NCBI GenBank assembly: GCA_018524725.1 | Contig: JAEUWP010000281.1 | Location: 1 to 22,467, forward strand | Direction: 5' to 3' | DNA from: Podaxis mareebaensis | Lineage: Eukaryota > Basidiomycota > Agaricomycetes > Agaricales > Agaricaceae | Length of the DNA stretch: 22,467 nucleotides | Shown here: positions 1-22,467 of the stretch, piece after piece | Layout of the letters: the number at the start of each line of letters is the position of its first letter | Position numbering within the stretch: position 1 is the first letter of the stretch | Notes under the pieces: generated by a model | Database searches by the model: none | What the model saw: the letters and a program-made list of their open reading frames with translations, nothing else | Told to the model about the DNA's origin: nothing | Position numbers and translations under genes: made by a program

Positions 1-109
1 CGAACTTGCTAGGGTGTGGCTTTTGGTAATACTATTTTATATTTCACTTCACATTAGCTCTTTTATTTGTTATATTCAATAGTGATCCATTTGCTGCCCC
101 ATCAGCGCC
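1..109. other. AT-rich left edge, no gene seen
   Basis: The first 109 bases are AT-rich and have no coding character. The frame used by the downstream pol remnant meets TGA at 83-85, and recognisable RNase H tail sequence starts only near 110. This is probably the junction where element A was truncated or interrupted. The left flank is outside the window, so I cannot tell a deletion from an insertion. Confidence 0.4.
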
Positions 110-1678
110 CATAAAATCAAGATTCGCCATATTCCCAGATCCAAGAACTGCACCGCCAATGCTTTGTCTAGAAGGCCAGATCACACCTCAACAAGTAAAG
201 ACATGGAGCTCAAAACAACAAAGGCAGCCATCCCACTAGAGAAGTTTCAAACTAGTGACTTCACCAATGCTAATGCGAAACTGGCTAATTCAGGAGAAAA
301 CAACAAAATCAACATCATAGACCCTGATGTTGAAAATGAAGCCCAGAAAGGAAAGGACAGAACCATAGAGTTGGATCAAGAAGGTCGCATTCAACTTCCC
401 ATGGACTCCATGCTTAAGAAGTGCTTGTTGCGGTGTGTACATGATGCACCAGCTGCAGGACACCCCAGAGTTGCTGAAACTCTCAGGAAACTTCAAGAAT
501 ACATCACCTGGCCTGGCATTCGCACCTACGTCACGAATTATGTGAAAGGATGCCCTACCTGCCAGCAGTACAAAATCAACAGACAACCCTTGAAGCCTCC
601 CCTCCAACCGATTCCAGGTCCCTGATCTTCACAGCCTTTTGACCAGATGTCCATGGACCTCATCACAGACCTCCCCGAATCCAACAGATATGACGCAATA
701 TTGTCCATGGTGGACCACGGTCTTACAAAGGGGATAATCATAGTACCCACTTCAAAATCTGCCACCACCGATCAAATCACAGACATCTTGATCAAGCACG
801 TGTTCATTCACACAGGAATACCTGATAAAATCATTTCAGATAGAGATCCCCGATTTATGGCCAAATCGATACAAGCCATGTTCAAGAAGCTGGATATCGA
901 TCACACCCCCTCTACTGCCTATCACCCTCAATCGGACAGATCAACTGAACGATTTAATCAAGAAATCGAGATGTACTTATTGGCCTATTGCGCTCAGAAT
1001 CCCCATACCTGGCCCGAACATCTTCCTCTAGTCGAATTCTCTCATAATTCCAGAACACACGCCAACTGCCAGCAAACGCCGTTTGAACTCATGTATGGCC
1101 ATCCCCTCAAAGCCTTCCCAACTGAGCTAGCACCAACAAACTCCCCATTGGCCAAAGAAAGAATGAATTGGATTATAAATATCCAAGAAGCTGCAAAAAT
1201 AGCACATGAGACTTCGTGCAAAATTATGATGGAACAGACACAAACATGCATGCTACCAAAAATAGAACCTGGCCAGAAAGTTTGGCTCAACGCTCGAAAC
1301 TTGCCCATTCAGGTCACGTCAAGGAAAATCGCCGCCCGTCGACTAGGCCCATTCACCATTGTTAGGAAACGTGGAAACATATCCTACGAGCTATCTCTTC
1401 CCAAGAACTGGAAGATCCACAACGTCTTCCATGTCCAATATCTCTATCCTGTCACTGAAAATGACATTTATGGCAAACACTTCTCAAGACCCCCACCTGA
1501 CCTCATCCAAGGAGAAGAAGAATGGGAAGTCAAAGCCATAGTGGTGCACCATCACACCAGAAGACAAGGATTAGAGTTTCTAGTGCATTGGAAGGGATAC
1601 CCCAAAGTGGAACGAACCTGGCAAAATTCGACAGACCTGTGCAATTCCAAAACCCTCCTCGATGCTTATAAACTATGA
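110..1678 (+). pseudogene. Ty3/gypsy element A pol remnant: RNase H tail, integrase, chromodomain
   Basis: This is the 3' part of a pol polyprotein that inserts retrotransposon cDNA into chromatin. The end of RNase H is visible as KIRHIP followed by ANALSRRPDH (about 113-184). The H2C2 zinc-binding domain of integrase follows, with HDAPAAGH and CPTC (about 440-575). The catalytic core has D at 656, D at 839 and E at 947; the last two are 36 codons apart, the D,D35E spacing. The C-terminus (about 1500-1675) is a chromodomain containing FLVHWKGYP and TW, which in chromoviruses steers insertion to heterochromatin. One in-frame TGA at 623-625 splits the frame. It falls where the family often has a short Pro/Arg linker before the core, so CGA to TGA is likely. 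IPG reads IPR and HPQTDG reads HPQSDR, both explained by CpG to CpA. The 5' end (gag, protease, RT) is missing. The ATG at 647 is internal and not a true start. Confidence 0.88.
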
Positions 1679-1709
1679 CACAACCTCCACTGAAACCCAA
1701 GCTACTTGA

Positions 1710-3381
1710 ATGTCTTTCACTTCTAATGACACTACAACCACTGACTACCCGACCACTCCCACTTCTTTCACCCGAGTGTCATCACAAACTCTTATCTCAG
1801 TTCCACCTACTCCCCTCACTCATGAGCTGACACCTTCCCCTGAAGATCGCCCCTCTACCCCCAAGTCCCTTCACTATGAAGAGCAGCAAAGACAAGTCAC
1901 CAACATCACAGAAGTCAGGCACCAAATATCCGAGGTGTTCCAACTACATGAAGCACAAAGCACCCAAAGGCAAACCTTTTTGTCTTGTGCCTTACAAGAA
2001 GCAGGTGATGCCGCTCTTTCTGCTGCAGTACGACTCGACTCTCTATACGAAGATGCCTTTTCCCGAGCAAGGACTGCTCTTGAGCATGGTAATCAATCAA
2101 CTGAAGTATTCGACTCTTTCAGGATGACTTGGTTTAATGCAATACATTGCCAGCTCCATGCTAACAGACTGGCTGACGAAGTCAGTGCCCGCTTTACTGA
2201 GGTTATTGACTTGCCAGGACTTGATCAAGAAAGGCGATACCTCTGAGGTGCCCACCACATGATTCTGCAAGTGTGAGAGGACGTATCTGCTTTTCTCCAC
2301 CCACAAATTGGACTTAGATCTGGCAATGTTACTCACAACCCCTCGCCCCGATGGAACCAAGGAACCACTTCAGTACCTGAGCAACTTCATGATGTGGATC
2401 GACAACACACCGAAACAAGAACTTCTGGAGATCCAGAACCTCTTATCACAGACAGCCCTATCCTCACCCTATCCAACCAATGCGCCACCTGCTATCAATG
2501 TAGCAATGTGGGTCATAGGGCGGATCAATGCAACAGATACTATTGCCCCTTCTGCCACCACTACACCCCCAGACACTACCAGAAGTATTGTTTTCTCAAT
2601 CCCATCAGAACCCGCCCACCATTCCATTATGCCAGAATCCTCACCAACTGAGCCCAGCTCGCCATGGCCAGACTCACCAAACATGCTGCCACTACTGGGC
2701 AGCAGGATGGTGGATGAGGAACTAGCACTCCCACAAACGATCAATCCCAGAATGCTCATCCCCCAGCTCTCCCCTTACCAACTTCCTCCTCCTCTGCAGC
2801 TCGACCCCCATCATCAGGAGACTCAAGATCTCCTTTGCCCATTCATCTGTGCTGCAACCAATGTCACACTCTCCTTCAGGCAGGCCTCACCACTGCTGAC
2901 AACATCTGAGGACCTAGATTCGCTGATGAACGCCATGACAGATCTCCTCCATGCCTCTCCCATCATGCCATCAATACCACCATCATCCCTAGAGCCTCTG
3001 ACCGATGCATTCACCCTCGACAACAGTCAGCTTGATCAATTGAGCGTGCCCTCTGAAGCATCATGGATGACGCAGGAGAGGGAATGTATGAATATCCTTA
3101 TGACAATGAAAATGTTACCGGGAGCCACTGAGTCGAGTGAGGACACTTGACATTACAAAGGGGATCATGTTACGAATATTGCAGACTCTGAGAACACCAA
3201 GGAGACTGAAGAGCCCGAGCAGCAGCCTTATGAAGAATGGGATTTGATGAAGCACATGATGGTAAGCCTCTGGCAGGAAACCATGGAGTTGCGACAAACG
3301 CTTGATTGGGAAATGTGCGAGAAGGTAGACGAAGCATGTCGCTACCACGGAGTATACTTTCCATGCAATGACGACTTGTGA
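1710..3381 (+). pseudogene. Element A second ORF with double zinc knuckle
   Basis: This ORF starts at ATG 1710, just after the pol stop at 1676. Its first 178 codons are polar and Ser/Thr/Pro-rich, then helical, ending in TGA at 2244. The same frame continues through TGA codons only and encodes a double zinc motif at 2490-2591: C-x2-C-x4-H-x4-C followed by C-x2-C and later H and C. This motif matches, cysteine by cysteine, the one in the intact ORF at 20715-22352, so the two are homologous. After about 2650 the frame collects many TGAs. The +1 frame is open from 2308 to 3147 and, after one TGA, to 3381, where it is acidic and plausible as protein. A frameshift between 2650 and 3150 is likely, but I could not place it. 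The last part runs past the predicted LTR start at 3168, so the true C-terminus is uncertain. Nucleic-acid binding is inferred from the knuckles. Confidence 0.6.
3157..3164 (+). other. Polypurine tract of element A
   Basis: AAAGGGGA lies four bases upstream of the predicted LTR start TGTTAC. Nearly the same block, AAAGGGGAT-N-ATGTTAC, occurs on the minus strand at 20675-20691 before the LTR of element C. In LTR elements this tract primes plus-strand DNA synthesis. Confidence 0.65.
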
Positions 3382-3946
3382 TCAGACACTGAACTTACTA
3401 CTTCCTATTTCAGACACTTTTCTATATTTGGACTAGGTATCAGTTTCATCTCTTCTGACATATTTATGTTCGCATCAATTATGCTTGCCCTTGCAGACTT
3501 TCGTCCTATGCCGTATGCACTCCACCTTTCTATCTTTATGCCCATATGCCTTATGAATTCCTCTTCCATATGCTTTCCTCTTATTCAACCTTTATGCTAC
3601 TATTGATCTACTTCCTAAAGTAGTCATAGGACTTGTATATGTATGCCGCCTGGACATGTAGATTAGCCAAGTCTAATCTTAATGCATGTTACCTTAACAT
3701 AACATGTTAAGTCTACATCTCTTCACCCTTGTGTGCAGCTTTTCCCTCCAAGGTTTCTCTTTAACGTCATGTCCTATGGAGTGTGTGATCTATACGAGTT
3801 TGCTGCCTAGAGACAATGTGAACAGCCACCCAAGGTTAAACAGAGCAGCTCCTTCAGACCTGTACAGGACAAGGACCTCTGCTCGTCTCACTTACAAGGA
3901 TAGGCTCTGACTTAGGTGTCACTTAGCCAAAGAAGAACCTGTAACA
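3168..3946 (+). repeat. Probable 3' LTR of element A
   Basis: The segment begins TGTTACG directly after the polypurine tract and ends GTAACA at 3941-3946, giving inverted ends TGTTAC/GTAACA. These are the same ends as the 648-bp LTR at 20033-20680. Most of it after 3382 is T-rich and non-coding. It includes an AGATTAG/CTAATCT hairpin near 3660 and CTTAACAT/ATGTTAAG near 3692. The right border rests only on the terminal hexamer, because there is no second copy in the window. I saw no clear internal similarity to the element C LTR by eye. Confidence 0.45.
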
Positions 3947-3960
3947 AACGAACTGACCTT

Positions 3961-6300
3961 ATGCCCATGCATAGCATATATAAAATACAACTCACTCAAC
4001 AGTACCTCAAGCACGTCCTCGACTCCACTAATGATGGGATCACCTATGATCCCCTCAACACCAAAATTGATGAAGTGATTGAAAGGGCCGAACAACACCC
4101 AGTACACGAGCACCATCATCAACACAATAACAATGGACCGCCAGCAATGCCTCAACCACAACTCCGCATTGCAGCCCCTCACTTACATCCACGCCATCCA
4201 TCCCCCTCACTGACTGCATTATCGAATACTGCCCAAGCCATGGTGCATTTACATGCACCCAGGCAACCAGGGGAAACAGATCAAGCTTACAACAAGCACC
4301 TCAGCACGCAATGATGACACGCACAAGGGTACAGCCTAAGGGCCACACACTTCACCATCGATGGGTCCACTGTCACGGATGGTGAGACAATCCCAGGGAA
4401 TGATACCTTCGCGAACCAATTGCATCACTATGCCCCAACCACTGGGGCATCACAATCCTGACTGCCGCCTCCCCTGTTAATGCAACCTGACCCCCGGGGT
4501 CAGATCAACACCCTCAATCCACATTGGTCACCTCAACTGCCCCCTATCCCTTCTCCCAAAGGGAAAGGACCAATGGGTGTACCATTGCCAAGAACAATGG
4601 CACAGGGTAGTAACTACCCTGCAATGAGTCCTGAGACCATGAGATTGCCACCGGCCAAACCCATGGCCGGTGGAAAATCCCCAGCAGCTTCAACATCAAA
4701 TGTTAAAGCCAAGCTACCTTCTGCCACTAGCGTTCCCATGAACGCTGGCTTGTTCCAAGCCTCGAGCACCCCATTCGTATTGCCTACAGCTAAACGAACC
4801 CCTCATGCTGATAAGTGGAGCGACTGGGTCACCTTACAATGAATGTGAAATGAAGACATTCGCACCCATGGGTCATCTCTGATAGATGACCAATATGTTA
4901 GATTCAACGGACACATACCCATTGAGGCCACCATGTCGGAACACAAGGAGCAAAAGGCAGCTACTCGTGTATTCTTTGGAGGCCCTCTCAAGACACCTCA
5001 AACAGTTAATACCTGCAAAACAGTCAGGATGGCATCCCCACCCCAACAACTATCCTTGCAGGGGCAAAATCTGCCCCCGCTATACAATCTACATCCCCTC
5101 CGAAATCTTCCTCCCGTCCAAGAGGAAGAAGGAGAGGAAGAAGATGATACAAAGGAGGAGCAGGAGGCATACACCACCTCACGACTCCCCACGCCAAACT
5201 GAGGGACTCGTCAATACTCTCTAGTCAGAGAGGCATGTGATGAGTCAGTAACTCTGGGGATCGTACAATCTGTCCAGAGTTACAATAACCTAATGTATGA
5301 TCATTTACACCGAATGATTGACCAATACCTCACGCAACCAATCAAGTATCCCAAAGGTTATAAACCTTCACTAAACAAGCTCCCCACAGAAAAGAGCTTA
5401 GAACTGTACAGTGGAAGTCACCGATTCAGAGACTTATTGTCATTTGTAACAAGTCTCTGTGCTGACTTCGCCATGAAAGGACTAGGGGGACAAAGTCCCA
5501 CTACGGATCGACTATGAATCCTAACCCTCCAATATTACCTCGTTGGAGAGGCAAAGGATATGTTCATTCATCATGTACTTAGTATAGATCATAGTAAATA
5601 CAATTGGACATTCAAGAGCATCATTACAGTGCTCTATGACAGATTCATCAGACTGATGTCAATGCACGAGGCTCGTGAAAGCCTCAAAGGGGTCAGATAC
5701 AATCCCAAAGAAGGGATTCAACACTATTACAACGCCATCTTGGGTTACTCGCAAGACATGGCGATCCACTCTGATGATTATTCTCTCATTGAGACCTTCC
5801 TGGAAGGTCTCCCACAAACCATGAGGCACTTCCTCATGTTCAACAGAGGACTGTCTCCTGAGATGAACCAACTTGAGGACTTCATGGCACATGCAGCTGA
5901 TTATGAGAATCGGATGCAAAGCAGTGCTTTCTTTGAAAGGGTACTGAAACCTTCTTGATCACATGAACCATCAGCAGGCTTCTCAAAGAAACCTGCTGCA
6001 GCAGAACCAAGAACGAGGACCACATGGGTCCCTCATCACATATCCACAGGATGAGATCGCATCCCTGCCCATGAGCTAAGGCAATCCTTGAATGCCTTTC
6101 CACCAAAGCAACCATCGAAACCCCCACCTCGACAATACAAACCCAAGGCTCAATTCAAACCACAGGTACAGAGCAAGGTACCTGTTAAGCAGAACCAAGG
6201 GAACAAGGCCACAGAGAAAGGGCCTTGTTATGAATGCAGAAAACATAGTCACTGGGCACAAGAATGCCCAGAGAAGGGGAAACAATGCAGCTATGTATGA
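3961..6300 (+). pseudogene. Element B gag with CCHC zinc knuckle
   Basis: Gag forms the virus-like particle that packages retrotransposon RNA. The frame can start at ATG 3961. About 3961-5290 is a low-complexity Pro/Gln/His/Lys-rich region with an acidic patch near 5119-5160. The capsid-like domain spans about 5293-5955 and contains the family-typical ETFLEGLP near 5788 and a helical ADYENRM segment. A basic Pro/Lys/Gln linker leads to a single knuckle at 6226-6267, C-x2-C-x4-H-x4-C. The frame is cut by TGA at 4312, 4315, 4459, 4840, 4846, 5200, 5515, 5956, 6052 and 6298, with no other stop type. The parts are in register throughout, so substitution rather than indels broke the gene. Confidence 0.75.
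3977..3985 (+). promoter_or_regulatory. Possible TATA box near the start of element B
   Basis: TATATAAAA lies just after the end of element A's LTR and upstream of the first hairpin-rich gag sequence. It is compatible with a promoter, but no matching LTR context is visible, so it may be coincidental. Confidence 0.3.
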
Positions 6301-7599
6301 GCCACACACACAGTCATTCCAGTGAACAACAAAGAAGTTCTTCAACAAGAAGTTGAAGAGATTGAACAGGACTTGACCTCAGAGGACAACACTGAGGTCC
6401 AAGAAGAACCAGAGTATAGTTTGTCAAATGGAGACAAACTAGTACAAGTCAAAGTCATCAAATCAGACTACAGATCTGATGTTGACAATGAATACGATTT
6501 TGCTGCCATGATTGGCGATGCAGAAGATGTCAGTGACAAAGATTGCAATGACTTTGATGTCGTCAACGCTCTCACTGTCGAGCCCAGCAAGAAACCAGAC
6601 CACGAAGTGAGGGTACACCGCATTACCCTCCATAAAGAGAAGGATAAGATCCTTCAGCCCCAAGCCTCCCTCAGTGAGAAACAATGTCTCGCCACTCTCG
6701 TCAGTGTCAACGGGATTGATGCTTGGACACTGTGGGACTCCGGTAGCATGACTACTGGCATCACCCCCACGTTTGCACAAGTGGCTGGCATCAGGGTCAA
6801 CAAACTATTAGACCCTCACACACTGCAACTGGGGACAGTGGGCAGTTGATCCACTGTCAAGTACAGAGCAACAGTAAATGTCACCATTGGAAACATATGT
6901 ACCTGTATGTATGTAGACACAGCGAACTTCGATCACTATGACATGATAATTGGTATGCCATTCATGCATACAAATAACGTCATCCTCAACTTCATCAAGA
7001 ATGAAGTCAGAATTGGAAACAAAACCATAGCAGTGGTGAACTTCACCAGTGAATCAGATACCCACCTGCGTCGCCACTGTGCAACTGACAAAAACAAGTC
7101 AAGTTGACTTGTGGAGGATGTCTGATGAGATAATATTCATCGAACATCCATAGAAGAAGTTTGAGATGACGAACAAAGTTCTAGAGGGGAAACATTACCC
7201 CACAATAGCCGTCACCTCCTAGAAGAGGTTGAGAGTTCCATGAACTCTCGAAGGGAGGACGTAGGTCACAGAGGACACAAGGTCTCCTCCAAGAGAGACA
7301 AACTGAAGGAAAAATCACACCCTTCACCAAACCAAGAGGGACAAAATGCCCCTCATAGACCACAAAAAACAAGATACAAGTCTTGTTTGATGGACAGACC
7401 CACTCAGAACCCAATGTTCGAGTGGTACTACGACCCCTGCATGCCCACAGAATGGAACGCCATGGTCTGCGGCATATGGGAAATGCGTCGTCCTGGGGAC
7501 AAACTACCAACCTCGACTGGGTTCACACAACCCAACCTCGACAACATAGTTGAAACTCAGGAGTTTACCAGGGTACATTACCCTGATAAAATGGTATGA
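6301..7599 (+). pseudogene. Element B aspartic protease region
   Basis: The retroviral-type protease cuts the Gag-Pol polyprotein. The catalytic triplet is visible as DSG in LWDSGS (Asp codon 6736-6738). The second half of the fold is seen in DMIIGMPFMHTNNVILNF (about 6940-7000), a typical gypsy protease block. An acidic linker precedes the domain (6322-6600), and a charged linker of unclear role follows it (7165-7596). TGA codons interrupt at 6847, 7105, 7123, 7126, 7162 and 7597. TGA 6847 lies in the 9-nt loop of an 8-bp hairpin (6834-6858). TGA 7123 pairs with a retained CG in a hairpin arm, which points to an ancestral CGA. Confidence 0.75.
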
Positions 7600-9261
7600 G
7601 ATCAACTCTGCAGTATGATCATCACTCGTCTTCCAGTGGAAGACGATTCAGAAACACAGATACAAAATGCTCGGATCAACGCCAAGAAGAGGAACTGCCA
7701 CCCTGAGCAACAAGGCTGGTACTCCAAGAAGGACATACCGACGCTGCACCAGCAGTGGTTCAATGAATTCAAGGACATAATGCATGGTCCTCCAGACAAG
7801 CTTCCCCCATTTCATGAAGTAAATCACGAAATAAACCTCATCGACAAGAGTAAGAAGTATAGCTACTTCACTCCCAGATGCCCACAATCCCTGCATGGGG
7901 AGTTTCACCAGAAACTCAACCACTATGTGAATGCAAGATGGTGGGAGCCACAACATATCTCCCAAGCAGCACTGTTATTGTGCATCCCAAAGAAAGATGG
8001 TCGATTACAAACTGTCATCGATGCACGACAACAAAACGAAAACACTGTCAAGGACGCTACACCCTTGCCAGACCAAGATGTCATTTGAGAAGATGTCACT
8101 TGAGTGCGATATCAATCCAAGATCGATCTCACTGATGCCTACGAGCAAGTCCGAGTATGTCTGGAAGATGTAGACAAAATGGGATTCGCTACAATCACTG
8201 GCACATATGTCAGCAACATAATGCAGCAGGGGGATTGTAATGCCCCTGCAACCTTTCAGTGGTTAATGACTGCTATATTTCATGATGTCATAGGTATATG
8301 TGTACACGTATACCTTGACAACATCTTCATATTTTCTGACTCAATAGATGAACACGAAGATCATCTACAACTTGTGTTTGAGCAACTGCACGAACACAAG
8401 TTATATGTCAAACAATCCAAATGCGATCTGTATGCAGATTGTGTAGACTGCCTTGGTCATATTATTGATGACCAAGGGATACACCCAGACGAAGACAAAC
8501 TGACTCGTATTTGGGGATGGTGCACTCCCAGAAACTATACTGATGTCCAACGATTTGTTGGACTTGTCAACTACCTGGCAAACTTTTTGCCAGATGTATC
8601 TGCATACACTGGGCCACTGCTTGCAATCACCCAGAATGGAACCCCATTCCATTGGAGACCCCTTCACCAGCGCTGCTTTGACATGGTAAAGAGGATCTGC
8701 GAGAAGACCCCTATTGTCAAACCGATAGACCCCAGAACTGGGGAACCCATATGGATCATCTGCGATGCCTCTAAGACAGGCATCAGAGCTATGTACGGAC
8801 AAGGACCCACCTGGGCAGACTGCCACCCAGCAGGATTCATGTCCAAGAAGTTCACCCCCGCACAGCAGAACTATGCTGTGCACGAACTCGAGATACTAGC
8901 AATTTTAGAAGTGCTAATGAAGTGGGAGGACAAGCTCGTCGGCTACCAGATCCATGTTATCATGGATCACAAGGCACTGGAGTTTTTCAAAACTCAAATG
9001 CGATTGTCTAGCCAACAACGACGATGGATGAACTATCTATCACACTTTAACTTTGACATTACATATGTCAAAGGAGAACGAAATAAAGTAGCAGACTGCT
9101 TGTCTCGCTACTTTGAAAGCAATACTCCAGGAGAGGAACACTCCCCTGGAGAATATGTCCAAGTCGACCACAGAATCGATCCTCACTGCGAGGACCTACC
9201 TCTACAACGAGCCAAGGAGATTGAGCATCTCCTTGACAGAGTCAAGGCAATGGTCGAGTGA
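7600..9261 (+). pseudogene. Element B reverse transcriptase and RNase H
   Basis: This part copies element RNA into DNA and degrades the RNA strand. RT motifs in order are IPKKDGRLQTVIDAR (about 7984-8028), SKIDLTDAYEQVRV (8116-8157), the QQGDCNAPATFQ block (about 8224-8259) and the catalytic box near 8311. The box reads YLDN instead of YLDD: codon 8320 is AAC after a C, as expected from CpG to CpA. RNase H follows, with CDAS at 8761, HELEI near 8881, MDHKALEFF near 8962 and ADCLSRYF near 9091. The usual GIGA after the first RNase H Asp reads GIRA (codon 8785, again preceded by C). TGA codons at 8086, 8101 and 9259 fall in frame; the first two lie between PLPDQD and SKIDLTDAY, where relatives carry Arg-type residues. 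The enzyme would be inactive even if translated. Confidence 0.9.
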
Positions 9262-10932
9262 CCATTGCAGCAAAGCACCTGCCTGCACGAACAACAGGAA
9301 GAATGAGAAATCGAAGCTCGTGAGCTCCAAGAAACAGCCCAGAGACAGGTGGCTCAACAGGAGCCACAAGAACGAATTTTTGAGTCTCCAACACTGGGAG
9401 ACACGTTAATGGGTAACATCACCACTGAAGCTCCAATGGAGCTCCCAGTCGATGTGATGAAAACAATCACATCAGGATATGCATCTGACCCTGTATTTTC
9501 AGCGGTGCTTGAAGCACCTGAGAAATACAGTGGTTTTACCATCAACAATGATGGTATTATTCAAAGAACTACCCCCCAAGGACAGGAGGTAGTATGCGTT
9601 CCCAACGATCAATCCTTAATTACAGAGCTTTTGAATAAAGCTCACAAGATCGTTGGTCACTTCGGCAATCAACGGACAGCAGAGTACCTCTGAAGGTGGT
9701 ACTGGTGGCCAAAAATAGCCAAAGATGCACGCATGTTCTGCAGAACATGTGAAATATGTCAACACTCAAAGGTCTTGACTATGAAACCTTCTGGGACACT
9801 GCACTCACTACCAGTCCCAACCAAACCTTGGGATTCCATTGGAATGGACTTTGTCAGTCCATTCCCTGAATCCAAAGGCTTTGACTACCTCTGGGTCGTC
9901 ATTTGTAGAATGACAAGTATGGTACACCTGATTCCAGTACATACACAGATGAAAGCATCCAAGTTATCTTGGATCTACCTACAAGAGATCGTGAGGCTAC
10001 ATGGCCTCCCTAGTTCAATCGTAAGCGATCGAGATTCAAAGTTCACCTCCATTTGGTGGGTAGAACTCCATAAAATTTTAGGAGCTAAGCTCCTAATGTC
10101 CACATCGTTCCACCCACAAACGGATGGGCAGACCGAATGCATGAACCGGAATATCGGACAGATATTCCAAGCAATGGTCAGCCATGACCAGAAAAACTGG
10201 GTAGACAAGGTACCCATGACCGAGTTTGCTATAAACTCGAGTATTTCGGCCACTACTGGGTATGCACCATTCAAATTGAACAGTGGATACATGCCCAGTA
10301 TGATCTGAGAAATACAGGGTGACCTGACACCCCCTAAGGGTGTTAGACTATTTGCCGAAGCTGCCCTGATAAACTTGGCATCTGCTCATGATGCCATCAT
10401 AGAAGCGCAGGTTTTCCAAACCTGCCAGGCAAACAAAAAGAGAGGGCCCAAACCCAACATTAAAGTCAGGGATCTGGTATTCCTCTCCACCAAAAACCTG
10501 AACTTGCTGAAAGGCAGAGCTCAAAAGCTCTGCCCAAAGTTCATCAGACCCTTTAAGGTCCTGGAAGCCAAACCTGAGACGTCTAACTACCGTCTCGAGC
10601 TACCACCAGCCCTGCAGGAACATCAAATACACCCGATGTTCCACATATCCTTGCTTCGGCCCTATAATGCATCAGATGATACACTATTCCCTAGCTGAAA
10701 TAAACCAGAACCCTATGACTTTGGTGTAGACAACGAACATGAATGGTTTGTCAATGAAATCATCAGTCATCGTTTCACAAACGATGGCAAGGTGGAATTC
10801 CAGGTACACTGGAGTCTAGGCAATATGACATGGGAGCTGTATTGCCATTGTAAAGACCTAGCAGCTCTAGATCGGTATCTAGAGCTGAAAGGTGCTAACT
10901 CAGTTCAACAACTACCACGGATCAGTCAATGA
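9262..10932 (+). pseudogene. Element B integrase with C-terminal chromodomain
   Basis: Integrase joins the cDNA to the host chromosome. The zinc-binding H2C2 part has HKIVGHFGNQRT and CRTCEIC (about 9640-9760). Between them the frame reads YL-TGA-RWYWWP, where relatives have an extra Arg. The core has D at 9847, D at 10027 and E at 10135, the last two 36 codons apart (D,D35E). QTE is followed by CMNR where relatives have Arg, as expected from CGC to TGC. A C-terminal domain ending in HPMFHISLLRPY (near 10630-10665) leads, after TGA 10696, to a chromodomain at about 10739-10890 with EWFVNEIISH, VHWSLGNMTW and LAALDRYLEL. TGAs lie at 9304, 9691, 10306, 10696 and 10930. The last may be either the true pol stop or another decayed CGA, since the frame continues into the next ORF. 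Confidence 0.88.
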
Positions 10933-11058
10933 CTATCCATGGAAAAATTGATGGTGTCCAAAATTGGACACTCAACCCTGAGGATCACATTCCCAATGTT
11001 TGGGAACACAGAGACAGGACAAATAACTTTAATTTGTTCTCGCCTCAACACCACCACC

Positions 11059-14000
11059 ATGGATGCACAACACCCCCAGTACACCCAACAGCAACAAGAT
11101 GCATCAGTGCAGGGTGACACGATTCACCCTGCACAACATGGAGGCCCTCCAACAGGCCTTGAAGGGGGGAGGGCAATGGACATATCGTCCGACCCAACCC
11201 CCACACCAGTGAACAATGGGCAACAATTCGCTGCCCATCAAGTGTTACTAACCAACCTTGTGGGCATGCTACCACAAGGTCCAAACATGATGGATCCATC
11301 GCATATGCATGCAATGCCCCCACCACCCCCACAATTCACGCAGGGTTTTCCATACCCTGCATTCTACCCTCCTCCTCCTCCACACATGTACAGTTTCCCA
11401 CAACCGTATGGGCACTATCCTCCACCACTGGCACCATATCAACAATACCAGCAAACCACCCCGGCACCACTCGCTCAACAATTGCTAGTGCCAATCCAAC
11501 AGACAGCGCCAGCCCTTCAACCACCACATCCACCGATCCAAGACCAGCCAGCTACAACAACACGACCAATGACGCTGGCCCCAAAGACATCATCCACAAC
11601 TGATGCACAGAGGAAAGATGCCCCTCCATCCCAATCTTCCTCAGTTGCCTCGACCCGAGGAAGGAGCAAGACCAAAAACTCCCTGGCATCCTTGTCCTTA
11701 GAGGACAAGGATAAACAGAAATTAACTGAGCCAGCACAGCCCATCCTTTCCTCAAAAGCCCGAGGAAAGCAACGAGCCATGGATGTAGAGCTCAAGGACA
11801 ACCAGTATGTCCAAGAGCTAATGAATCGACTCAATGAGGCAGGTCTACCTATAGACCTGATATCCGAATTAAGCACCAGCTCAAGGCACACTGGCTGCAA
11901 TGCAATTATCGAGGAGCTTCTCATGAAGCTCCGTAGTCTGCAAGACCGTTTTGTCATGCTCGAAGGACAAAACAGCTTACTACAGAGGCAGGTCTCGAAC
12001 CTGCAATGACAACTAAACAAAAAGTCGGACCACGAAGAAGAACAGCCTGCAAAATGACGCATGATGTCTCAATCGACGACATCATCTCAATGGGGGGTGC
12101 ATAGCACCCCACAGACCCCAACAACCCTGACACTGCGCACTGGTAACAAGGTAAAACCACTACCTCACCAACATTGTCAACCTTTGCCTCCACTGACCGC
12201 TTCATCCTCACGTCAGCCACCACCACTGCCAGCCAATGTTACCCTACCATATATTGAGGAGGTACTGTCCGGGGACATCAATGTCCCCATGACAGAACCT
12301 CCTCAAACAACCCCATCGAGGTCAGTAAAACAGACCTCGAGCAGCATTGTTCCATCAGAGTCCCTATTTGAGGGACTCTCCTTTGGCCAACTGATCCTGG
12401 TATGCCCACCAGGAACTCTCCTCCCAGAGCCTGAAATCTGACTACATCACGAATTCATCCGGTACAGTCCAGACGACCCAGATGAATGATTATCAGGCCT
12501 GGAATACTCGAGTGACAACGATGATTCCACAAAGAATTGTCGTAAGAAAAACAAGAGCAAATCAAAGGCATCGTCGTCAAATAATGACGACTGCGCCAAT
12601 GTATCAGACCACATTGGCTGCGGAGGTAGAGTCCCCGACTTCTGGGGACTCTGGGGAACCAAACCCGGCATTTGAGAATGTGACAACTTCATGCACAGAA
12701 TGTTGTCGCATGACATCTACTACTGCCAGTGAATAAACACTGTGTTCACCGGTACAAATGCCCAAATTGCTGCAAACAGTGAACTCCAAGGTAGGGAGTT
12801 CATTCACAGCAACAAGAAGGGCACCATCCACCACATCACAGGCCAGGGTCTACCTATGACCCCAAGACAAGTAATTCGGTTATGGCAGTTCATGAACAAC
12901 TGCCATGTCAACATCCACAGCAGGTTTGAAGCATATTTCTTGCTTTGAGAACTGTATCACATCACCTCCTTGACCCTTCCAGAGCATCACAATGATGCTA
13001 TGGAATTCATACTGAACCTTGAGGGTTACGACCCCAAGTTTTTAGCATCTGGGATGCAGGAGGAGTACATCACCAGGTTAGAACCCATCATGTGTGCCAT
13101 ACAAGACCATGGTGCATGCAATATCCTCAAATGAAACGAGGGCAAAGGATTACCGATGCCCTCTGGACCACAACTGTTCGATATTGACCTTTTAGGTCAA
13201 TATCTTCTAATACATGGAAACCCTGACATGCGCAATGCCTTTAATGGCATTGCATTCAAACAGCAGAAGCTTGTGCACTGCCGTTGCATATTTGGATATG
13301 GCCTGGGCCACGCTTTAAGTCCTGACAATAAAAGCACAGCCCAAAGGTTCGTGCGACTATTCGCAGTACTGGTAGCAACCCCACACCTCTACCATGAACT
13401 CATCACATCATACAACAGCCACATTCCTCCAGAATGTGCCTTCGCTCCTCAGAATGGGCCCGTATACTCTATATGGCCCCTAGAAATGACTTCATATGCA
13501 TCCCACAATCTGAGCCTCAATGATGTGGCTCACGTTCTCATCTGCAACAGTATACCCATTTCATGGGTAGACCACTCTTACCTTTTTGGGCTGTGGTGGT
13601 TAAACCACACCTATCGTGGTGACCAATTACACCACAACTTATACGATGAACATGACAACTGCCGGGTCGAGTACCTTGACTGATACCACGAGCCCCTGGT
13701 GATTCCTGAGTGGGATGGTTGGAGACATCCCACTCTCGATGACATTAACCAATTCTTGTACTTTGAGTACAAGAATGCACAACAAGCAAAAGGGGAGCAC
13801 TTTGTTCCCCGAGGGTGGTTACCAGCAGGAGCATTGCCCTTCTTCCGGCTCCTCCAGAACCATGATTACCCCCAACGCCTGCTGGAACCACCCCCCTCCC
13901 AATTGTGGCTGGCCCACCCCCTCATGTTGACCCTCACCAGGTCGACACCTATGATCACCAAGGGAGCAGCACTCGATGCAGACACCCAAATGACAGAGGC

Positions 14001-14211
14001 CAACACCTCTGTAACCACTCCCACCACCGCCGACCATCCATCATTGGATGCAACCATGACTGAGGCCAATGCCTCTGCCCTTGCGTCTGATCTGCCTCCC
14101 ATTGCCTTCCTGGCTGAGGCCAACACCTCTGCCCCATTATCCCAAGATGTCGCTGGCGAATCTTCATCGATCGCCTCCTCCCACTCACACTCGTCCTCAT
14201 CACCTTCTTGA
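11059..14211 (+). pseudogene. Element B third ORF, unrecognised, downstream of the chromodomain
   Basis: I do not recognise this protein. It lies in the same frame as pol. The ATG at 11059 has a good fungal start context (CACCATGG) and 129 nt follow the TGA at 10930. From N to C terminus it shows a Gln/Pro/Tyr-rich region with runs of five prolines (about 11320-11470), a Ser/Lys-rich part, and a likely coiled coil ending LLQRQVSNLQ (about 11810-12006). Next come a Ser/Pro linker, a short basic patch near 12535-12570, and a mixed-composition, probably globular region of about 390 residues (12730-13900) rich in His and aromatic residues. The tail is Ser/Thr-rich with three TEANTS-like repeats (13991-14135). 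TGAs lie at 12007, 12055, 12439, 12487, 12673, 12730, 12946, 13132 and 13681, ending at 14209. No signal peptide or membrane segment is apparent, so it is not an obvious envelope protein. It could be a captured host gene or an accessory particle protein. Confidence 0.6.
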
Positions 14212-14370
14212 ACAAGTCAACCCCAGCTTATGCCTTTGTTGAGGTGAACTGTCACCTCGTACTAATCCACCATGCTGGCTGGGCACTATATGTGCCCCGT
14301 CCATCACTCACCTCCACAAGTAGCCATGCCACTTGTGTTTCAATTTCCTTGACCATATTCTATGGTCTCA

Positions 14371-14380
14371 ATGGGGGGTG
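14371..14380 (+). other. Probable polypurine tract of element B
   Basis: ATGGGGGGTG directly precedes TGTAAGGG, the expected order of polypurine tract and LTR start. The tract is G-rich and lies about 160 nt after the last TGA of the third ORF. Confidence 0.45.
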
Positions 14381-14583
14381 TGTAAGGGCTGGGCCCTTGC
14401 AGTCACATATTCATTGCTCCATATCATCTTCAGTTGCTCATTGTTAATTAATTAATTATTTTCTTGTTTGTCTTGGACCTTGATGGATTACTCAATCCAT
14501 CAAAAAACATTCCTTATAAATCTCGCTGTCAGCTGTTGTTAGGACAGCTGACCTTATACATACACTACGTACATCCCAATACA
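14381..14583 (+). repeat. Probable 3' LTR of element B, right end uncertain
   Basis: The segment starts TGTAAGGGC after the G-rich tract and contains a TATA box at 14515. It also carries two element-B-style hairpins, a 10-bp stem at 14480-14503 and a 9-bp stem at 14528-14552. I place the end at ATACA near 14583 because LTRs end in CA and CpG-free copia sequence begins soon after. No 5' copy was found to confirm either border. Confidence 0.35.
14515..14521 (+). promoter_or_regulatory. TATA box in the element B LTR
   Basis: TATAAAT lies about 135 bp into the proposed LTR and is followed by non-coding sequence, as expected for an LTR core promoter (U3/R border). Confidence 0.45.
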
Positions 14584-14626
14584 TCAGGTTTATTGTATGT
14601 CGGTGTGAACTTAAGGTCTAAAGCTC

Positions 14627-15441
14627 TTAGTAAGCCTCAGTAGGCTTACATCTTTCTAGAGGCCTAGACACTCTTTCAAAGTTTACATTAAAGCTTTTCT
14701 GATGCATTTTTCCCATAGCACAACCCTCACAAGGTTTCAAGCTGTTTTTGGGAATGTCTACATGAGGAAAGCCAATTGTACTTGTCTCAAAATGTTTGAG
14801 GATATGATCTGATGGGTGTCCCATTCAATTGTGTAGGATGTCATATCCTGGATTGAAACTAGTTGCAAAGGCATGCATATCACCTTGACTTTTAATTATC
14901 TTACTCTTCACATAGTGTAGAGTATGAGAGCAACTGATCATCAGTTTGGCAACTAGGATTGGATGTCCCATAGCATCATTGATGCTTGAGTAGCTGTCAG
15001 TTGTTTCAATTTTAGCTCCTGCTTTAGCAAGTTGCCCAACTGATAACAATTGATCTCCACCACTTCAAGGTAATGCACCAGATATAGATAAGAATGATTT
15101 AATATCCAAGTGCCATCATCTGTATTGATCATGGTTTCAATTAAGACAGTTCCATGACCAGGAGACTGCATTGGAGTACCTGCTGTATAAACATTTATTG
15201 GTTCAGGGTAATATTGGAAGTCAATGAAGTCTTCCAAATGAGGTGTATAGTGCCCTGAGGCTCCTGAATCCAATAACCAAATAGCATTATACTCATCCAT
15301 ATATATTGGTTCATCTTCATGAGCAATCTTAGAAGTGTTTGGACTAGGTGGTTCATGTATGGAATGGATAACATTAAAGTGAGATGTGCTTGTGCACATT
15401 GCTACAAAATCTGTACATGATACATTGTAAAAATTGTCCAA
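14627..15441 (-). pseudogene. Copia protease and GAG-pre-integrase domain
   Basis: The aspartic protease signature WLLDSGASGHYT lies at about 15240-15285 on the minus strand. Downstream, a one-base frameshift between about 15040 and 15065 moves the frame so that LLSVGQLAKAGAKI, a copia hallmark, is read from about 15049. The pre-integrase zinc motif follows, HN-TGA-MGHPSDHI, then CEGCAMGK (about 14720-14830). The TGA at 14825-14827 sits where copia elements often have Arg (HNRMGHPS), which fits CGA to TGA. Coding ends at TAA 14627. The sequence stops within the linker that normally leads into the integrase core. Confidence 0.85.
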
Positions 15442-15462
15442 ATTTATGAGCCACCTAAGTAC

Positions 15463-17265
15463 TCACTCCCATGGTGGTAGGTGCTCATCTCCTCTTCCTC
15501 CTTCTGCCCTACATGGGTGACTCACTGACCCTCCCAATGTTTGGCCTTGGCACAGTGCTTCTTGCTGAGCTTGCCCTTTTTCTTCCCTTGAGGAAGCATC
15601 ATGACTGGTCTGAGATAGGAGGTGATCAGCATCAGAAGATGGTGATAAGATTTGGATTACATACTCCATTGCCTTCTTTTTGAAGTCACTCTCAGCATCA
15701 CTCATGTCATCAGCATTGTAATCCACATCAGATAGATGATGTGGGCCATTGACAAGAGGTGGGCAATCTTTGACATTGCTCTTGACAAGATCAATCTCAT
15801 CATTGGGATGAGACACTCCAGGGAGACAGGGAGAAGAAGGTGGGCAATCTTTGACATTGCTCCTGATGAGGTCAATCTCATCATTGGGATAAGACACTCC
15901 AGGGAGATGGGGAGAAGAAGGTGGTGCAGGTGGGACATTGACTGATGAGGTCACAGGCACCATGGCCTCATCCCATTCATGTTCTGTTAAACCTATTGAG
16001 TAAAGGTATTCCTGATCTTTAGGATCAGAAGGAAAACCTTCTGGGTTTTTGTTGATCACAGCAAGAGCCTCTTGAAGGGCTCAAGAGCTTTGTTTTCCCT
16101 GTTGAGTAACAAGGAAGTGAATAAGCTGTAATCAACCAATAGGGTTAACACATATGTTTGGATCAACTTCATAAGTGTCCTTGATAACACCAAAATGAAT
16201 TAAATGGTTCATCAAGTCTTGATAGAAGCAACTCACATGTGGGATGTAGACCTCCCCTTGAGCCTTAGACTTCCCTTTCTTGAAGCAAAGTTCCTTAGCC
16301 TTCCTCTGCTTCTCTTTTTCATGTTCATGAAGAGCTTCTTTGATGACATCATACAGCTTCTCAGGGCACTGCATTGAAGGCTGAGTCTTCTTTGGATTTT
16401 TAGTCCATTTGCCCATGCAGACACACTGAGAGTAAGTGCCTACCTCAATCAGGTGACCTGCTGGCAGAAGACCAGACTGTCCCAGAAGTGGTGGGAAGTC
16501 TTCATCAAAGGTCTTTGCTTTCTCACTAACATTATCTAGTGACATGAGGAGTAAGGTTTCCTCAATCAGTTCCACAATGCTTCATTTGGTTGGAACACAA
16601 CAAAGCTTATGGGTATGATTGATGTTGCAATAACATTGGGATTGGATCTTCTGTTCCTTGTGAAGCTGATCCAGTGACTTAGTCACTGTATCAGTGCATT
16701 GACATTTCACTGTCTTGAGGGTCTCATGCACTTCCTGTGCAAGGTTGATTATTTCTTGCTCAAGGATGGCAGTAAAACAGAGGTTACTTGCCTCTATTTT
16801 TGACTCCTCAAACTTATGCTTCTCCTGCATGGCAGGAGAGTAAGTTGGGACAATGGGAACAGGGTTCTGAGACCATACCCAGTGAGAAAGTGAAGGGAGC
16901 AGGGGGCAATCCTGTGGGACTGAAGCAGCCAGATGCTGCTGGACCAGAGCCTGTGGCAGAATGTGAGGAGCATTCTGTTGTGGCCACTGGATCTGATCTA
17001 AGAGGTCAAAGGGGTGCATGTTGGGACCTGTGTAAGGTCTACCAGCACCAGCAGGAGATGGATGGTCTGGCTCTGCTAGTCAAGCAGGTGCAGCAAAACC
17101 CACCATGGAATTGGCTGGTTTAGCTGTGGCATTAGGGGACTTCTTCTTCTTGGGGGCCCTTTTCTTCTTTGGCTTGATGGTCTGCCATTGACCTGGCTGA
17201 CTGCTTTGTTGTCCTTGAGGCTTGGGACCATTGGAGGACTTGTCCCTGCTAGTAGGCTGAGACAT
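15463..17265 (-). pseudogene. Unrecognised insert between copia gag and protease
   Basis: About 600 codons lie between the gag core and the protease, in the gag frame, with TGA at 17080, 16582, 16132, 16078 and 15463. I do not recognise this part. It begins with a Lys-rich stretch (KPKKKRAPKKKKSP, about 17140-17190). A Pro/Gln-rich region follows, then a helical region with scattered Cys (about 16590-16800). Next is a charged helical segment rich in Lys/Glu (about 16250-16370), then an acidic Ser/Pro part with a 27-residue tandem repeat. The CCHC knuckle usual in copia Gag was not found. Near 15470-15600 the +1 frame looks more protein-like (basic, then acidic), so another frameshift is possible. 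Confidence 0.5.
15758..15919 (-). repeat. Two tandem 81-bp copies in the copia insert
   Basis: Copy one is 15758-15838 and copy two 15839-15919, differing at only a few bases. The period equals 27 codons, so the frame is kept. Both encode an acidic unit containing DCPPSSP, LPGVS, PNDEIDL and a final Ser. This is a recent in-frame duplication of a low-complexity segment. Confidence 0.85.
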
Positions 17266-17991
17266 AAATCAACTACAAGGTGGGCCAGGATGGGTTTTGT
17301 TCCAGACAGAAGGACTGCCTTGGTCATTGGGAAGCTTAGCTTTAGCAGCAGAGTTAGCATTGGCAAGATGAGCAGACATTTTGTTATGTCCAGTCCTCTG
17401 TGCCCATTCAGCATTTAAAGTGTCTGTGACCACTCACCAAGTTAAGGCAGCAATAGTGGTATTATTGGTCAACAACAATTGTCAGACCAAATCCCACTCA
17501 TCTGGAATAGCTGAAAGAAGAACCATGGCTCTGAGAACTTCAGGGATGGCAGCAGTAGCTTCCTCAACCTGAGTGAAGAGCATTGCCATTTCAGCAATAT
17601 CAACCACAATATCTCTTTCTCTGGTGATTCTCTTCTTCAGAGCTTGGGTGAACAAGCTGTAGACATTAGCAGGACCAAGCATTCCAAATTGAGTTTAGAG
17701 ATAAGTCCATAAGGTGTCTGGGGCTGTTCTACCATGAAGCAGCATCGAATCTGGCAATGTGTTTTCAATAATCGATAAGGCTTGTGCCTTCATCTGATTC
17801 TGACATGCTGTTTCAGCTATATCACCTGTTCCAGGTGCTGTTGCTGTTCCATTGGTCAGGGACCAGCCTGTTTCTGTGGAACCAGTAACACTAATCAAGG
17901 AAAGAGCTCCTTGAAGGTGACAAGCCCAGAACTTGTAGTTGGAGGGGCCCTCAAGTTTAGGAAGGGAGTTGGTAGCAATAGCTGATGCCAT
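17266..17991 (-). pseudogene. Copia gag (UBN2-like) N-terminal region
   Basis: Gag is the structural particle protein. The likely start is the ATG at 17991 (MASAIATNSLPKLEG), because LEGPSNYKFW is the conserved copia gag opening; the frame is open further upstream to 18105 but that part looks like leader. LLSAIPDEWDLV near 17500 is the second family hallmark. Stops interrupt at 17695 (TAA), 17482 (TGA), one TGA near 17420 and one near 17270. The TAA is the only in-frame stop in this segment that CpG decay cannot explain. Confidence 0.8.
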
Positions 17992-18105
17992 ATCTGATGT
18001 ATCAAAATAGTTGGCAGTTAAGTAGTCAGCTGAGTATAAGAACAAATATGGGGTATTAGTGTAATGCAAAATACAGATAATGATCAGGTAGTTATCCCAA
18101 GACAT

Positions 18106-18669
18106 CTTTATCTCAATCCTAAATTAATAGGAGAGAATCCTCAGAAGGAGAGTCTCAGGGCCCATAACCTGATGAGAAGAAAATGATATTGCTGCTACAC
18201 TAGCATTGCATCAGTGGAGAGTAAACCAGTTACTCACAATCTGAGGCTAATTGAACAGGAAGTGAATTGGTAAGGTGAGGGAAAGGTGAGTCCAATGGAG
18301 AACCAGTAAAGATAAGGCTGAGTTGAAAGTAGCAAGGAATGGTGTGCTTAGGAGAGCTGAGATGTCAAATAGATGAGGAATGTAAACTCCAGTGAAGCAA
18401 GTATGCTACTACATGAGGGTTTAAATACTGTAGTAGCTACACTGGGTATAGGGTATAATACATGCATGAGTCAGAAACATAAAGCATACATGCATACAAC
18501 ATGAGTAGGATGCATGTAAAAGATGAAGATAGATGAAACATGACTCTACCATATACTACAGGAGTCATAAGATGTGAGAAATGTTTCTACAGGTCATAAT
18601 CCATGAGGATATGAGTAATACTAACACAGGCCATACATCTACATATGTGTTATAAGTATATTAATAGAA
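18106..18669. other. Non-coding stretch, probably copia leader and LTR remains
   Basis: No ORF of note is present. It lies directly upstream of the minus-strand copia gag, where leader and 5' LTR should be. A minus-strand TTTAAA (18420-18425) lies inside a loose CTACTAC/GTAGTAG hairpin and could be an old LTR promoter. ATGCATG motifs recur near 18460-18515. I could not define LTR borders. Confidence 0.4.
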
Positions 18670-19710: not shown

Positions 19711-20032
19711 TTCTTAGCCTGTTTCTATTTCTACCTCATCTCCACTCCATAGTTATATGTCTCTGATTGACTATTGGACTTAGCACTACATCATCATAGA
19801 TTCCCAATTAAGACCATAGATGTAGAGCTTAAATAGCTACCCATGTACTGGGAGTGCAAGCTTCCAATATTCTAAACCTCAATTGTATCTATGTACTTCA
19901 CTCTTACAATTGATGTTAGTTGATGATCAGTGTGGTAGTAAACTTTCTATTAGTCATACTCTTGACTGATAGAAGTTCAACCTCTAAGTGTGCTTAATTC
20001 ACATAGTCAACCTACAGTGTAGCGAGTGACTC
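19711..20032. other. Non-coding gap with one imperfect hairpin
   Basis: No gene is visible. An imperfect inverted repeat pairs 19941-19955 (AACTTTCTATTAGTC) with 19964-19977 (GACTGATAGAAGTT). The last ten bases, GCGAGTGACT, carry the first CpG after the desert and border the LTR at 20033. The five bases before the LTR, GACTC ending at 20032, may be one copy of the target-site duplication. Confidence 0.4.
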
Positions 20033-20680: not shown

Positions 20681-20683
20681 TCA

Positions 20684-20695
20684 TCCCCTTTGTGT
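20684..20695 (-). other. Polypurine tract of element C
   Basis: On the minus strand ACACAAAGGGGA is followed by TGATGTTAC. This matches the corresponding block at 3155-3173 of element A apart from two extra bases and one substitution, linking the two elements to one family. Confidence 0.75.
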
Positions 20696-20714
20696 AATCG
20701 AACTCCGGATCGAT

Positions 20715-22352: not shown

Positions 22353-22400
22353 GAGTATGTTTGGAAGTGGCGAGCTTTTGGAATGGAGGGATGAAATGTC

Positions 22401-22410: not shown

Positions 22411-22467
22411 CTCTACTAAAATCTTCGAAGCGTTTCTTGTCAAGTTTTCTTCGTCTTCCCAAGTGTT

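What the first reader, a model, noticed from the sequence alone, without database searches (positions are those of the whole stretch)
4487..14552. A gypsy element saturated with short perfect hairpins
Seen directly: at least 45 perfect stems of 8 bp or more (ten of 10-11 bp) in about 10 kb, with loops of 0-15 nt, plus many 6-7 bp stems. With uniform bases about 2.5 stems of 8 bp or more and 0.15 of 10 bp or more are expected. They cross gag, pol, the third ORF, the 3' end and the LTR, with centres in every codon position (5801 second, 13192 first, 13764 third), so neither protein sequence nor a single RNA signal explains them. Elements A and C and the copia fragment in the same window do not show it. 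Inference: either a mutational process that perfects near-palindromes (template switching by RT or polymerase on hairpins) or selection for a locally folded genomic RNA, for example for packaging, RT pausing or evasion of silencing.
Basis: partly seen in the sequence, partly recalled or inferred. Interest (0 to 1): 0.88.

Follow-up and report, generated by a model that had tools for sequence, protein, structure and literature searches.

The report
Retrotransposon packed with selected RNA hairpins
A family of jumping genes in a mushroom-type fungus carries a small perfect hairpin about every hundred bases along nearly its whole length, and natural selection appears to keep them there, a genome-wide folding habit otherwise described in some RNA viruses.

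Summary
Element B (about 3945-14650) holds 61 perfect stems of 8 bp or more (loops 0-15). Dinucleotide shuffles give 2.5, codon-preserving shuffles 2.8-4.0. All 20 copies fetched show the excess, as do five elements of a second clade (64% DNA identity). Six genomic control loci (one overlapping a distant gypsy RT) and a further gypsy RT region do not.

Predicted folding excess (MFED, 350-nt windows) is 21-33% on the sense strand in four elements, against -4 to +7% in six control sets.

Template switching is not supported: changes at lost stems are not concentrated in one arm, loops are not inverted, and stems evolve slowly even where both paired bases are synonymous. Selection is supported: third-position diversity in stems is 0.35 of background (0.24-0.49), loops are unconstrained, and pairs that cannot form in a single-strand hairpin are not conserved. 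Compensatory double changes support it less strongly. Most hairpins turn over between clades while density stays.

Best reading: density of local hairpins in the genomic RNA is under selection, as in genome-scale ordered RNA structure of RNA viruses. The sense strand is favoured only weakly. The benefit (shielding, packaging, reverse transcription) is unknown.

The parts
3945..14650 (+). Element B, a Ty3/gypsy-type LTR retrotransposon, 5'-truncated here (5' LTR and part of the leader missing, where an LTR of element A abuts it at about 3945)
   Evidence: Copies elsewhere in the genome match from window 3945 and to about 14650; RT/RNase H and integrase Pfam hits
3945..4461 (+). 5' leader remnant: 4 stems of 7 bp or more against 0.37 expected
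   Evidence: leader of another copy (L041) 8 vs 0.69
4462..7107 (+). gag frame (881 codons), ends at a TGA kept in 18 of 18 copies with sequence there
   Evidence: (Retrotrans_gag, 21.7 bits, below its cut-off of 24.1)
7108..10932 (+). pol frame (1274 codons): RT, RNase H, integrase; ends at a TGA kept in 17 of 17 copies with sequence there
10933..14211 (+). third frame (1092 codons), same frame as gag and pol; no Pfam match in the pieces scanned
   Evidence: no homologue found for the second clade's version
14381..14650 (+). 3' LTR (approximate), with stems 14480-14503, 14528-14552 and 14630-14649
   Evidence: this stretch recurs 5' of two other copies (C287, C280); hairpins
4400..14660 (+). 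Hairpin field scored: 61 perfect stems of 8 bp or more (loop 0-15); 96 separate hairpins of 7 bp or more (loop up to 10), mean spacing 107 nt; about 20% of bases in stems of 6 bp or more
5791..5811 (+). 10-bp stem recorded with a 1-nt loop; as a single strand it must open to 9 bp with a 3-nt loop
   Evidence: unformable inner pairs are not conserved
6834..6858 (+). 8-bp stem, 9-nt loop, perfect in 18 of 18 copies
7094..7112 (+). 9-bp stem whose 3' arm contains the gag-pol TGA; perfect in 16 of 18 copies
9051..9073 (+). 9-bp stem, 5-nt loop, perfect in 17 of 17 copies
10862..10887 (+). 11-bp stem, 4-nt loop, perfect in 16 of 17 copies
13180..13204 (+). 11-bp stem, 3-nt loop, perfect in 12 of 13 copies
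6417..6441 (+). 9-bp stem, perfect in 8 of 19 copies, 7 of those 8 with changed bases (CpG sites not excluded)

Best explanation
Element B belongs to a lineage of LTR retrotransposons whose sequence is under selection to fold, as a single strand, into about one hundred small local hairpins (mostly 7-11 bp, loop of at least 3 nt) spread over leader, gag, pol, third ORF and LTR. Shown: the excess, its presence in two clades, slow evolution of stems, lack of constraint on loops, the lack of selection on pairs inside loops under 3 nt, and turnover of individual hairpins at similar density. Inferred: the strand is the sense genomic RNA; selection acts on density of local pairing rather than on particular hairpins; and the benefit is general, most likely keeping the RNA locally closed (less accessible to antisense or small RNAs, and more compact for packaging). 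This resembles the genome-scale ordered RNA structure (GORS) of some RNA viruses.
For: Excess over dinucleotide and codon shuffles (second clade). All 20 copies show it, 41-67 stems of 8 bp or more in the 16 loci with at least 8 kb aligned. Five elements of a second clade show it, 22-56 vs 0.8-3.2. Six genomic control loci sum to 4 vs 4.1; one of them (L033) overlaps a distant gypsy RT, and a further such region (L040) shows none. Third-codon-position diversity outside CpG-prone sites: stems 0.058 vs 0.166, ratio 0.35 (bootstrap 0.24-0.49), loops 0.177. WC-preserving doubles exceed independence per cell: odds 3.2 vs 0.56 in the second clade; 10.0 and 3.4 vs 0.77, and 5.3 vs 0.67, in three B pairs. 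Inner pairs that a single-strand hairpin cannot form are broken in 17% of 222 cells, against 2.6-3.6% for middle and innermost formable pairs and 6.0% for outermost pairs of the same stems; inner complementarity in 3- and 4-nt loops is 0.25 and 0.24 for stems of 7 bp or more, chance 0.245. MFED on the sense strand exceeds the reverse strand in all 12 elements tested (seven B including the window, five of the second clade). In formable middle pairs G.U is tolerated best in 4 of 4 analyses. Only 10 of 54 B stems sit in the same register in L035, yet densities are similar. The preferred codon registers are the two that leave more third positions free.
Against: The strand is only weakly resolved. 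The G.U over A.C difference has intervals that include zero in all four analyses, three of which share data. Coarser comparisons showed no G.U advantage or mixed results; one search showed a modest one. By z-score one of six B elements (L016) folds slightly better on the reverse strand. G.U-containing stems are few: one-G.U stems are enriched about 6-fold over shuffles, against about 43-fold for perfect stems of 9 bp or more (29 vs 0.68 in the window). Counted by column, non-CpG double changes in B are few: 7 of 403 columns. L035/L038 showed no double-WC cells, and between clades the odds are 0.69 vs 0.38. For stems of 6 bp or more inner complementarity in 3-nt loops is 0.31, above chance. No GNRA/UNCG loop preference. 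Some non-B stretches are not blank: C, and flanks or inserts in L017 and L015. Two clades from one genome only; no DNA relatives could be read elsewhere. No expression or probing data.
Confidence: 0.7

Rival explanations
1. Template switching (by reverse transcriptase or DNA polymerase) copies one arm of a near-palindrome onto the other, creating and correcting perfect hairpins; selection on protein then removes harmful events.
For: Stems are nearly all Watson-Crick and individual hairpins turn over. Position 1 is more diverged in lineage-specific B stems than outside in 4 of 5 comparisons. The process is documented in yeast coding genes and proposed for RNA hairpins (PMC8604942, abstract; PMC8794818, passages).
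Against: Changes at lost hairpins are not more one-sided than in control stretches (asymmetry 0.28 vs 0.31, 0.32 vs 0.42 and 0.48 vs 0.45 at three divergence ranges). Only 5 of 2635 changed loops look inverted, all 4-5 nt and partial. Pairs with both bases at third positions should drift freely but diverge at 0.035 vs 0.177 and 0.088 vs 0.209. Positions 2 and 3 of lineage-specific B stems are not consistently more diverged than outside.
Confidence: 0.08
2. The selected hairpins form in single-stranded cDNA or in both sense and antisense RNA, not only in the sense RNA.
For: Several comparisons treat G.T and A.C alike, loops show no RNA-type tetraloop preference, and the reverse strand also has high MFED, 16-24%.
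Against: When only formable middle pairs are counted, G.T is tolerated better than A.C in 4 of 4 analyses, and sense MFED exceeds reverse-strand MFED in all 12 elements tested. A perfect hairpin is perfect on both strands, so high reverse-strand MFED is expected anyway.
Confidence: 0.2
3. The inverted repeats are double-stranded DNA sites with dyad symmetry, for example for dimeric DNA-binding proteins.
For: They are short, perfect and present on both strands by nature.
Against: Arm sequences differ from site to site. Innermost pairs in loops under 3 nt are not conserved and, for stems of 7 bp or more, not in excess.
Confidence: 0.03
4. The excess is a by-product of composition, codon usage, repeats or assembly.
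For: None found.
Against: Dinucleotide and codon shuffles, genomic controls, many copies on different contigs, slow stem evolution.
Confidence: 0.01

Closest known systems
Genome-scale ordered RNA structure (GORS) of positive-strand RNA viruses (PMC7642675, passages read)
   Same: Folding energy excess along the whole genome, consecutive stem-loops through coding sequence, lower diversity at paired sites, pairings that turn over between relatives while the overall level stays.
   Different: A fungal LTR retrotransposon; MFED 21-33% (non-overlapping 350-nt windows, not the identical protocol) against about 15% for SARS-CoV-2 and 23.4% for the most structured coronavirus in the passage read; signal concentrated in perfect 7-11 bp stems with short loops and few G.U pairs.
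Yeast Ty3 and Ty1 genomic RNA structure (PMC11381356, passages read)
   Same: Ty3/gypsy relative; structured regions dispersed over the genomic RNA.
   Different: There stable low-reactivity regions make up to 30% of the RNA and the known cis-acting sequences sit in a structured 5' end; saturation by perfect hairpins is not mentioned in the passages read.
Template-switch hairpins (PMC8794818 passages; PMC8604942 abstract)
   Same: Perfect stems in functional sequence.
   Different: Expected footprints (one-arm changes, spacer inversion) were looked for and not found.
Coding palindromes of Nematomorpha mitochondria (PMC6649704, abstract)
   Same: Many perfect inverted repeats inside protein-coding genes.
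   Different: Those reach 284 bp; here none exceeds 11 bp in the window.
Dispersed packaging-signal hairpins of small RNA viruses (recalled, no paper read)
   Same: Many small hairpins along a packaged RNA.
   Different: Those are recalled to share a loop motif; loops here are unconstrained.

Membership tests
Genome-scale ordered RNA structure (GORS) | Folding energy below dinucleotide shuffles along most of the genome | tested here: met
   MFED 20.8-32.6% in 4 elements, six control sets -4.4 to +6.6%; each of eleven 1-kb bins of B enriched for stems of 7 bp or more (the last bin runs past the end of B)
Genome-scale ordered RNA structure (GORS) | Many consecutive stem-loops in coding sequence, not explained by codons | tested here: met
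   57 vs 2.8-4.0 in codon shuffles; second clade
Genome-scale ordered RNA structure (GORS) | Less diversity at paired sites | tested here: met
   ratio 0.35
Genome-scale ordered RNA structure (GORS) | Pairings poorly conserved in position between relatives | tested here: met
   10 of 54, 3 of 27, 7 of 47, 11 of 55 and 8 of 49 alignable stems in the same register in five second-clade elements
Genome-scale ordered RNA structure (GORS) | Property of the sense genomic RNA | tested here: inconclusive
   sense MFED higher in all 12 tested, G.U best tolerated in 4 of 4 but intervals include zero
Genome-scale ordered RNA structure (GORS) | Structure shown in the actual RNA by probing | not testable with these tools
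   no transcripts or probing data
Ty3/gypsy LTR retrotransposon | gag then RT, RNase H, then integrase | tested here: met
   (gag match below its cut-off)
Ty3/gypsy LTR retrotransposon | Flanking LTRs | tested here: met
   not both in the window; the 3' LTR stretch recurs 5' of two other copies
Template-switch-generated hairpins | Changes clustered in one arm | tested here: not met
Template-switch-generated hairpins | Spacer inversions | tested here: not met
   5 weak cases of 2635 changed loops

The most novel reading that the evidence does not exclude
A whole lineage of fungal LTR retrotransposons has evolved a genome-wide folded RNA, comparable to or above the most structured RNA viruses reported in the paper read, in which selection maintains hairpin density rather than individual hairpins, plausibly as a general shield against small-RNA or antisense silencing.
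Probability: 0.4. Interest if true: 0.88.

Novelty: new variant of a known kind. Interest (0 to 1): 0.74.

Why it matters
GORS has been discussed for RNA viruses and host persistence, with its function unsettled (PMC7642675, passages). Finding the same signature in an endogenous LTR retrotransposon of a fungus takes it outside vertebrate innate immunity and into a setting with many fossil copies, where selection can be measured copy by copy. It makes the question of why some replicating RNAs fold along their whole length testable with small-RNA data, probing and comparison among related elements with and without the property. A search of the open library for GORS together with retrotransposons listed 5 papers, none of whose titles or abstract openings concerns this; related searches were made, of which I saw the listed rows only.

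Tried and rejected
Template switching, dsDNA dyads and composition were tested and set aside (see rivals). A first covariation count gave 218 WC-preserving double changes against 8 others. I discounted it because copies have suffered CpG decay: all 31 frame stops in the window are TGA and 28 of the 31 show CGA or CAA in other copies, and double CpG hits mimic compensation. The codon- and pair-resolved counts leave out CpG-prone sites (one search also lists the prone sites apart); searches do not. The cell-level excess then remained, but within B rests on only 7 columns. The early impression that G.T and A.C are treated alike weakened once terminal and sterically impossible pairs were removed. 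Loop first-mismatch and tetraloop tests for strand were uninformative. The second clade's third ORF gave no homologue (the 7983 best candidates scored) and only a weak sub-threshold Pfam match. No relatives at DNA level in the viral and prokaryote contig collections. Rfam: no match in the window. A first count for element A had included part of B's leader; one search repeats it without.
Full report
What was checked. A scan for maximal perfect stems lists 59 of 8 bp or more (loop 0-15) within the stated 4487-14552 and 61 in 4400-14660, 13 of them 10-11 bp. Dinucleotide-preserving shuffles of 4400-14660 give 2.48 (maximum 8 of 200 shuffles) and 0.15; over the whole of B, 3945-14650, the figures are 61 and 2.45. 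The excess sits at loops up to about 10 nt and vanishes beyond: 3 stems for loops 16-31, 0 for 300-315. Shuffles that keep the encoded protein and codon usage give 2.8, and 4.0 when codon-junction dinucleotides are also kept, against 57 observed. Each of eleven 1-kb bins of B is enriched for stems of 7 bp or more. Leader and 3' end also carry the excess.

What the element is. B is a Ty3/gypsy-type LTR retrotransposon with RT, RNase H and integrase Pfam matches. Copies elsewhere match from window 3945 to about 14650, and the 3' LTR is about 14381-14650. Its 5' LTR is missing here; an LTR of element A abuts B's leader. The genome holds 37 Mb in 429 contigs, and two B pieces each match 35 places including the window (lower bounds). 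The few named proteins among the 120 listed RT homologues (of 651) are Agaricomycetes such as Hypsizygus, Pleurotus and Trametes (class recalled). Three frames (881, 1274 and 1092 codons) lie in one reading frame, separated by TGA codons kept in 18 of 18 and 17 of 17 copies. All 31 in-frame stops of this copy are TGA; 28 show CGA or CAA in other copies, which reads as decay of CpG.

Family-wide property. All 20 fetched copies have the excess; the 16 loci with at least 8 kb aligned hold 41-67 stems of 8 bp or more against 1.6-3.5 expected. Five elements of a second clade (64% DNA identity; 67-74% protein identity in RT) hold 22-56 against 0.8-3.2, and four open frames of one of them show it against codon shuffles. 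Six 3-kb control loci sum to 4 against 4.1. One of the six, L033, overlaps an RT of a distant gypsy clade; L040, another such RT region, also shows none. Other non-B stretches are mixed: a 7.5-kb flank in L025 shows none, flanks or inserts in L017 and L015 show some (6 bp or more: 34 vs 16.7 and 25 vs 12.3), element A is marginal and C has 24 vs 7.7 stems of 7 bp or more. MFED in 350-nt windows is 28.2, 28.9, 32.6 and 20.8% in four elements and between -4.4 and +6.6% in six control sets on either strand, A and C included. A coronavirus paper reports about 15% for SARS-CoV-2 and 23.4% for the most structured virus in the passage read (PMC7642675); the protocols are similar, not identical.

Selection or mutation. 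With CpG-prone sites excluded (2134 of 10261), third-position diversity among 20 copies is 0.058 in stems and 0.166 outside stems, ratio 0.35 (bootstrap over stems 0.24-0.49), while loops have 0.177. Single changes in stems run at 0.20-0.65 of control in the within-clade tables and 0.72-0.85 between clades. WC-preserving doubles exceed independence in most tables: odds 3.2 vs 0.56; 10.0 and 3.4 vs 0.77; 5.3 vs 0.67; none seen in L035/L038; 0.69 vs 0.38 between clades. Counted by column within B there are only 7 of 403, so covariation is supportive rather than strong.

Template switching predicts changes in one arm, loop inversion, and free drift where both bases of a pair are synonymous. None is seen: arm asymmetry is below control in two of three divergence ranges and close to control in the third; 5 weak cases of 2635 changed loops; third-third pairs at 0.035 vs 0.177 (B) and 0.088 vs 0.209 (second clade). 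One observation leans the other way: position 1 of lineage-specific B stems is more diverged than outside in 4 of 5 comparisons.

Single strand, not duplex. In stems recorded with loops of 0-2 nt the innermost pairs cannot form in a hairpin. These are broken in 17.1% of 222 cells, against 2.6% and 3.6% for middle and innermost formable pairs and 6.0% for outermost pairs of the same stems. Inner complementarity in effective 3- and 4-nt loops is 0.25 and 0.24 for stems of 7 bp or more and 0.31 and 0.26 for 6 bp or more, with 0.245 expected. By column in the window this rests on 5 of 8 against 13 of 57.

Which strand. Perfect stems are the same on both strands, so the strand shows only in imperfect pairs. 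Coarse counts showed no G.U advantage, mixed results or a modest one. Restricting to formable middle pairs gives G.T 0.44, A.C 0.22, other 0.12 in B, and 0.55/0.32/0.30, 0.43/0.28/0.16 and 0.67/0.39/0.26 for three overlapping second-clade references; intervals for the difference include zero. Sense MFED exceeds reverse-strand MFED in all 12 elements tested, although composition favours this and one B copy is slightly reversed by z-score. Sense RNA is therefore the likelier but unproven carrier.

Turnover. Between clades only 10 of 54, 3 of 27, 7 of 47, 11 of 55 and 8 of 49 alignable B stems of 7 bp or more keep their register, against 0-3 in shifted controls, while density is similar. At 80-92% identity 149 of 2048 stems have lost three or more pairs, at 70-80% 52 of 231, at 60-70% 940 of 1390 (ordered pairs, not independent). 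Selection on density rather than on particular hairpins fits this best. The two preferred codon registers are those with more free third positions.

Function. Loops are unconstrained, which argues against a shared packaging motif. Hairpins span all parts, which argues against a local signal. A general benefit of local folding is left: shielding from antisense or small RNAs (about 0.35 of my belief), compaction or packaging (0.3), reverse transcription or cDNA effects (0.25), other (0.1). These are judgements, not results.

Limits. One genome; copies share ancestry, so cell counts overstate independence; no transcripts; 20 B copies, five second-clade elements and a few control loci were in hand.

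Noticed in passing
7105 and 10930: gag, pol and the third ORF share one frame and are separated by TGA codons conserved in all copies with sequence (18 of 18, 17 of 17). The pol/ORF3 stop reads TGACTA in all 17, and the second clade's aligned sequence near its gag-pol boundary contains TGACTATATGG in 5 of 5 elements; UGA-CUA is a recalled high-readthrough context, and Candida Tca2 is reported to have gag and pol separated by a UGA (PMC2194720, abstract opening in a search listing)..
   Followed up: partly
10939-14211: Third ORF of about 1092 codons without Pfam match in the pieces scanned and, in L012 and L035, without a strongly hydrophobic stretch. The second clade's version found no database homologue; B's own was sought only in this genome. 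In L035 it lies in the +1 frame relative to pol..
   Followed up: partly
4462-14209: All 31 in-frame stops in this copy are TGA, 28 with CGA or CAA in other copies: decay by CpG transitions, as expected of a methylated repeat..
   Followed up: partly
14651-22467: The C region has a moderate excess of short stems (24 vs 7.7 of 7 bp or more, 7 vs 2.1 of 8 bp or more) but low MFED (4.0 and 6.6%). Element A (1-3944) is marginal (7 vs 3.3)..
   Followed up: partly
18826-19997: A stretch of the C region recurs (71% identity) in an insert within another B copy (L015 4610-8060), which itself holds 6 stems of 8 bp or more against 0.9..
   Followed up: no
11438-14300: Several copies keep about 88-91% identity up to about 11.4-11.8 kb and drop to about 75-77% in the third ORF, which suggests recombinant subfamilies..
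   Followed up: no
14953-15441: Minus-strand frame with a Pol_BBD match, a different retroelement pol fragment..
   Followed up: no
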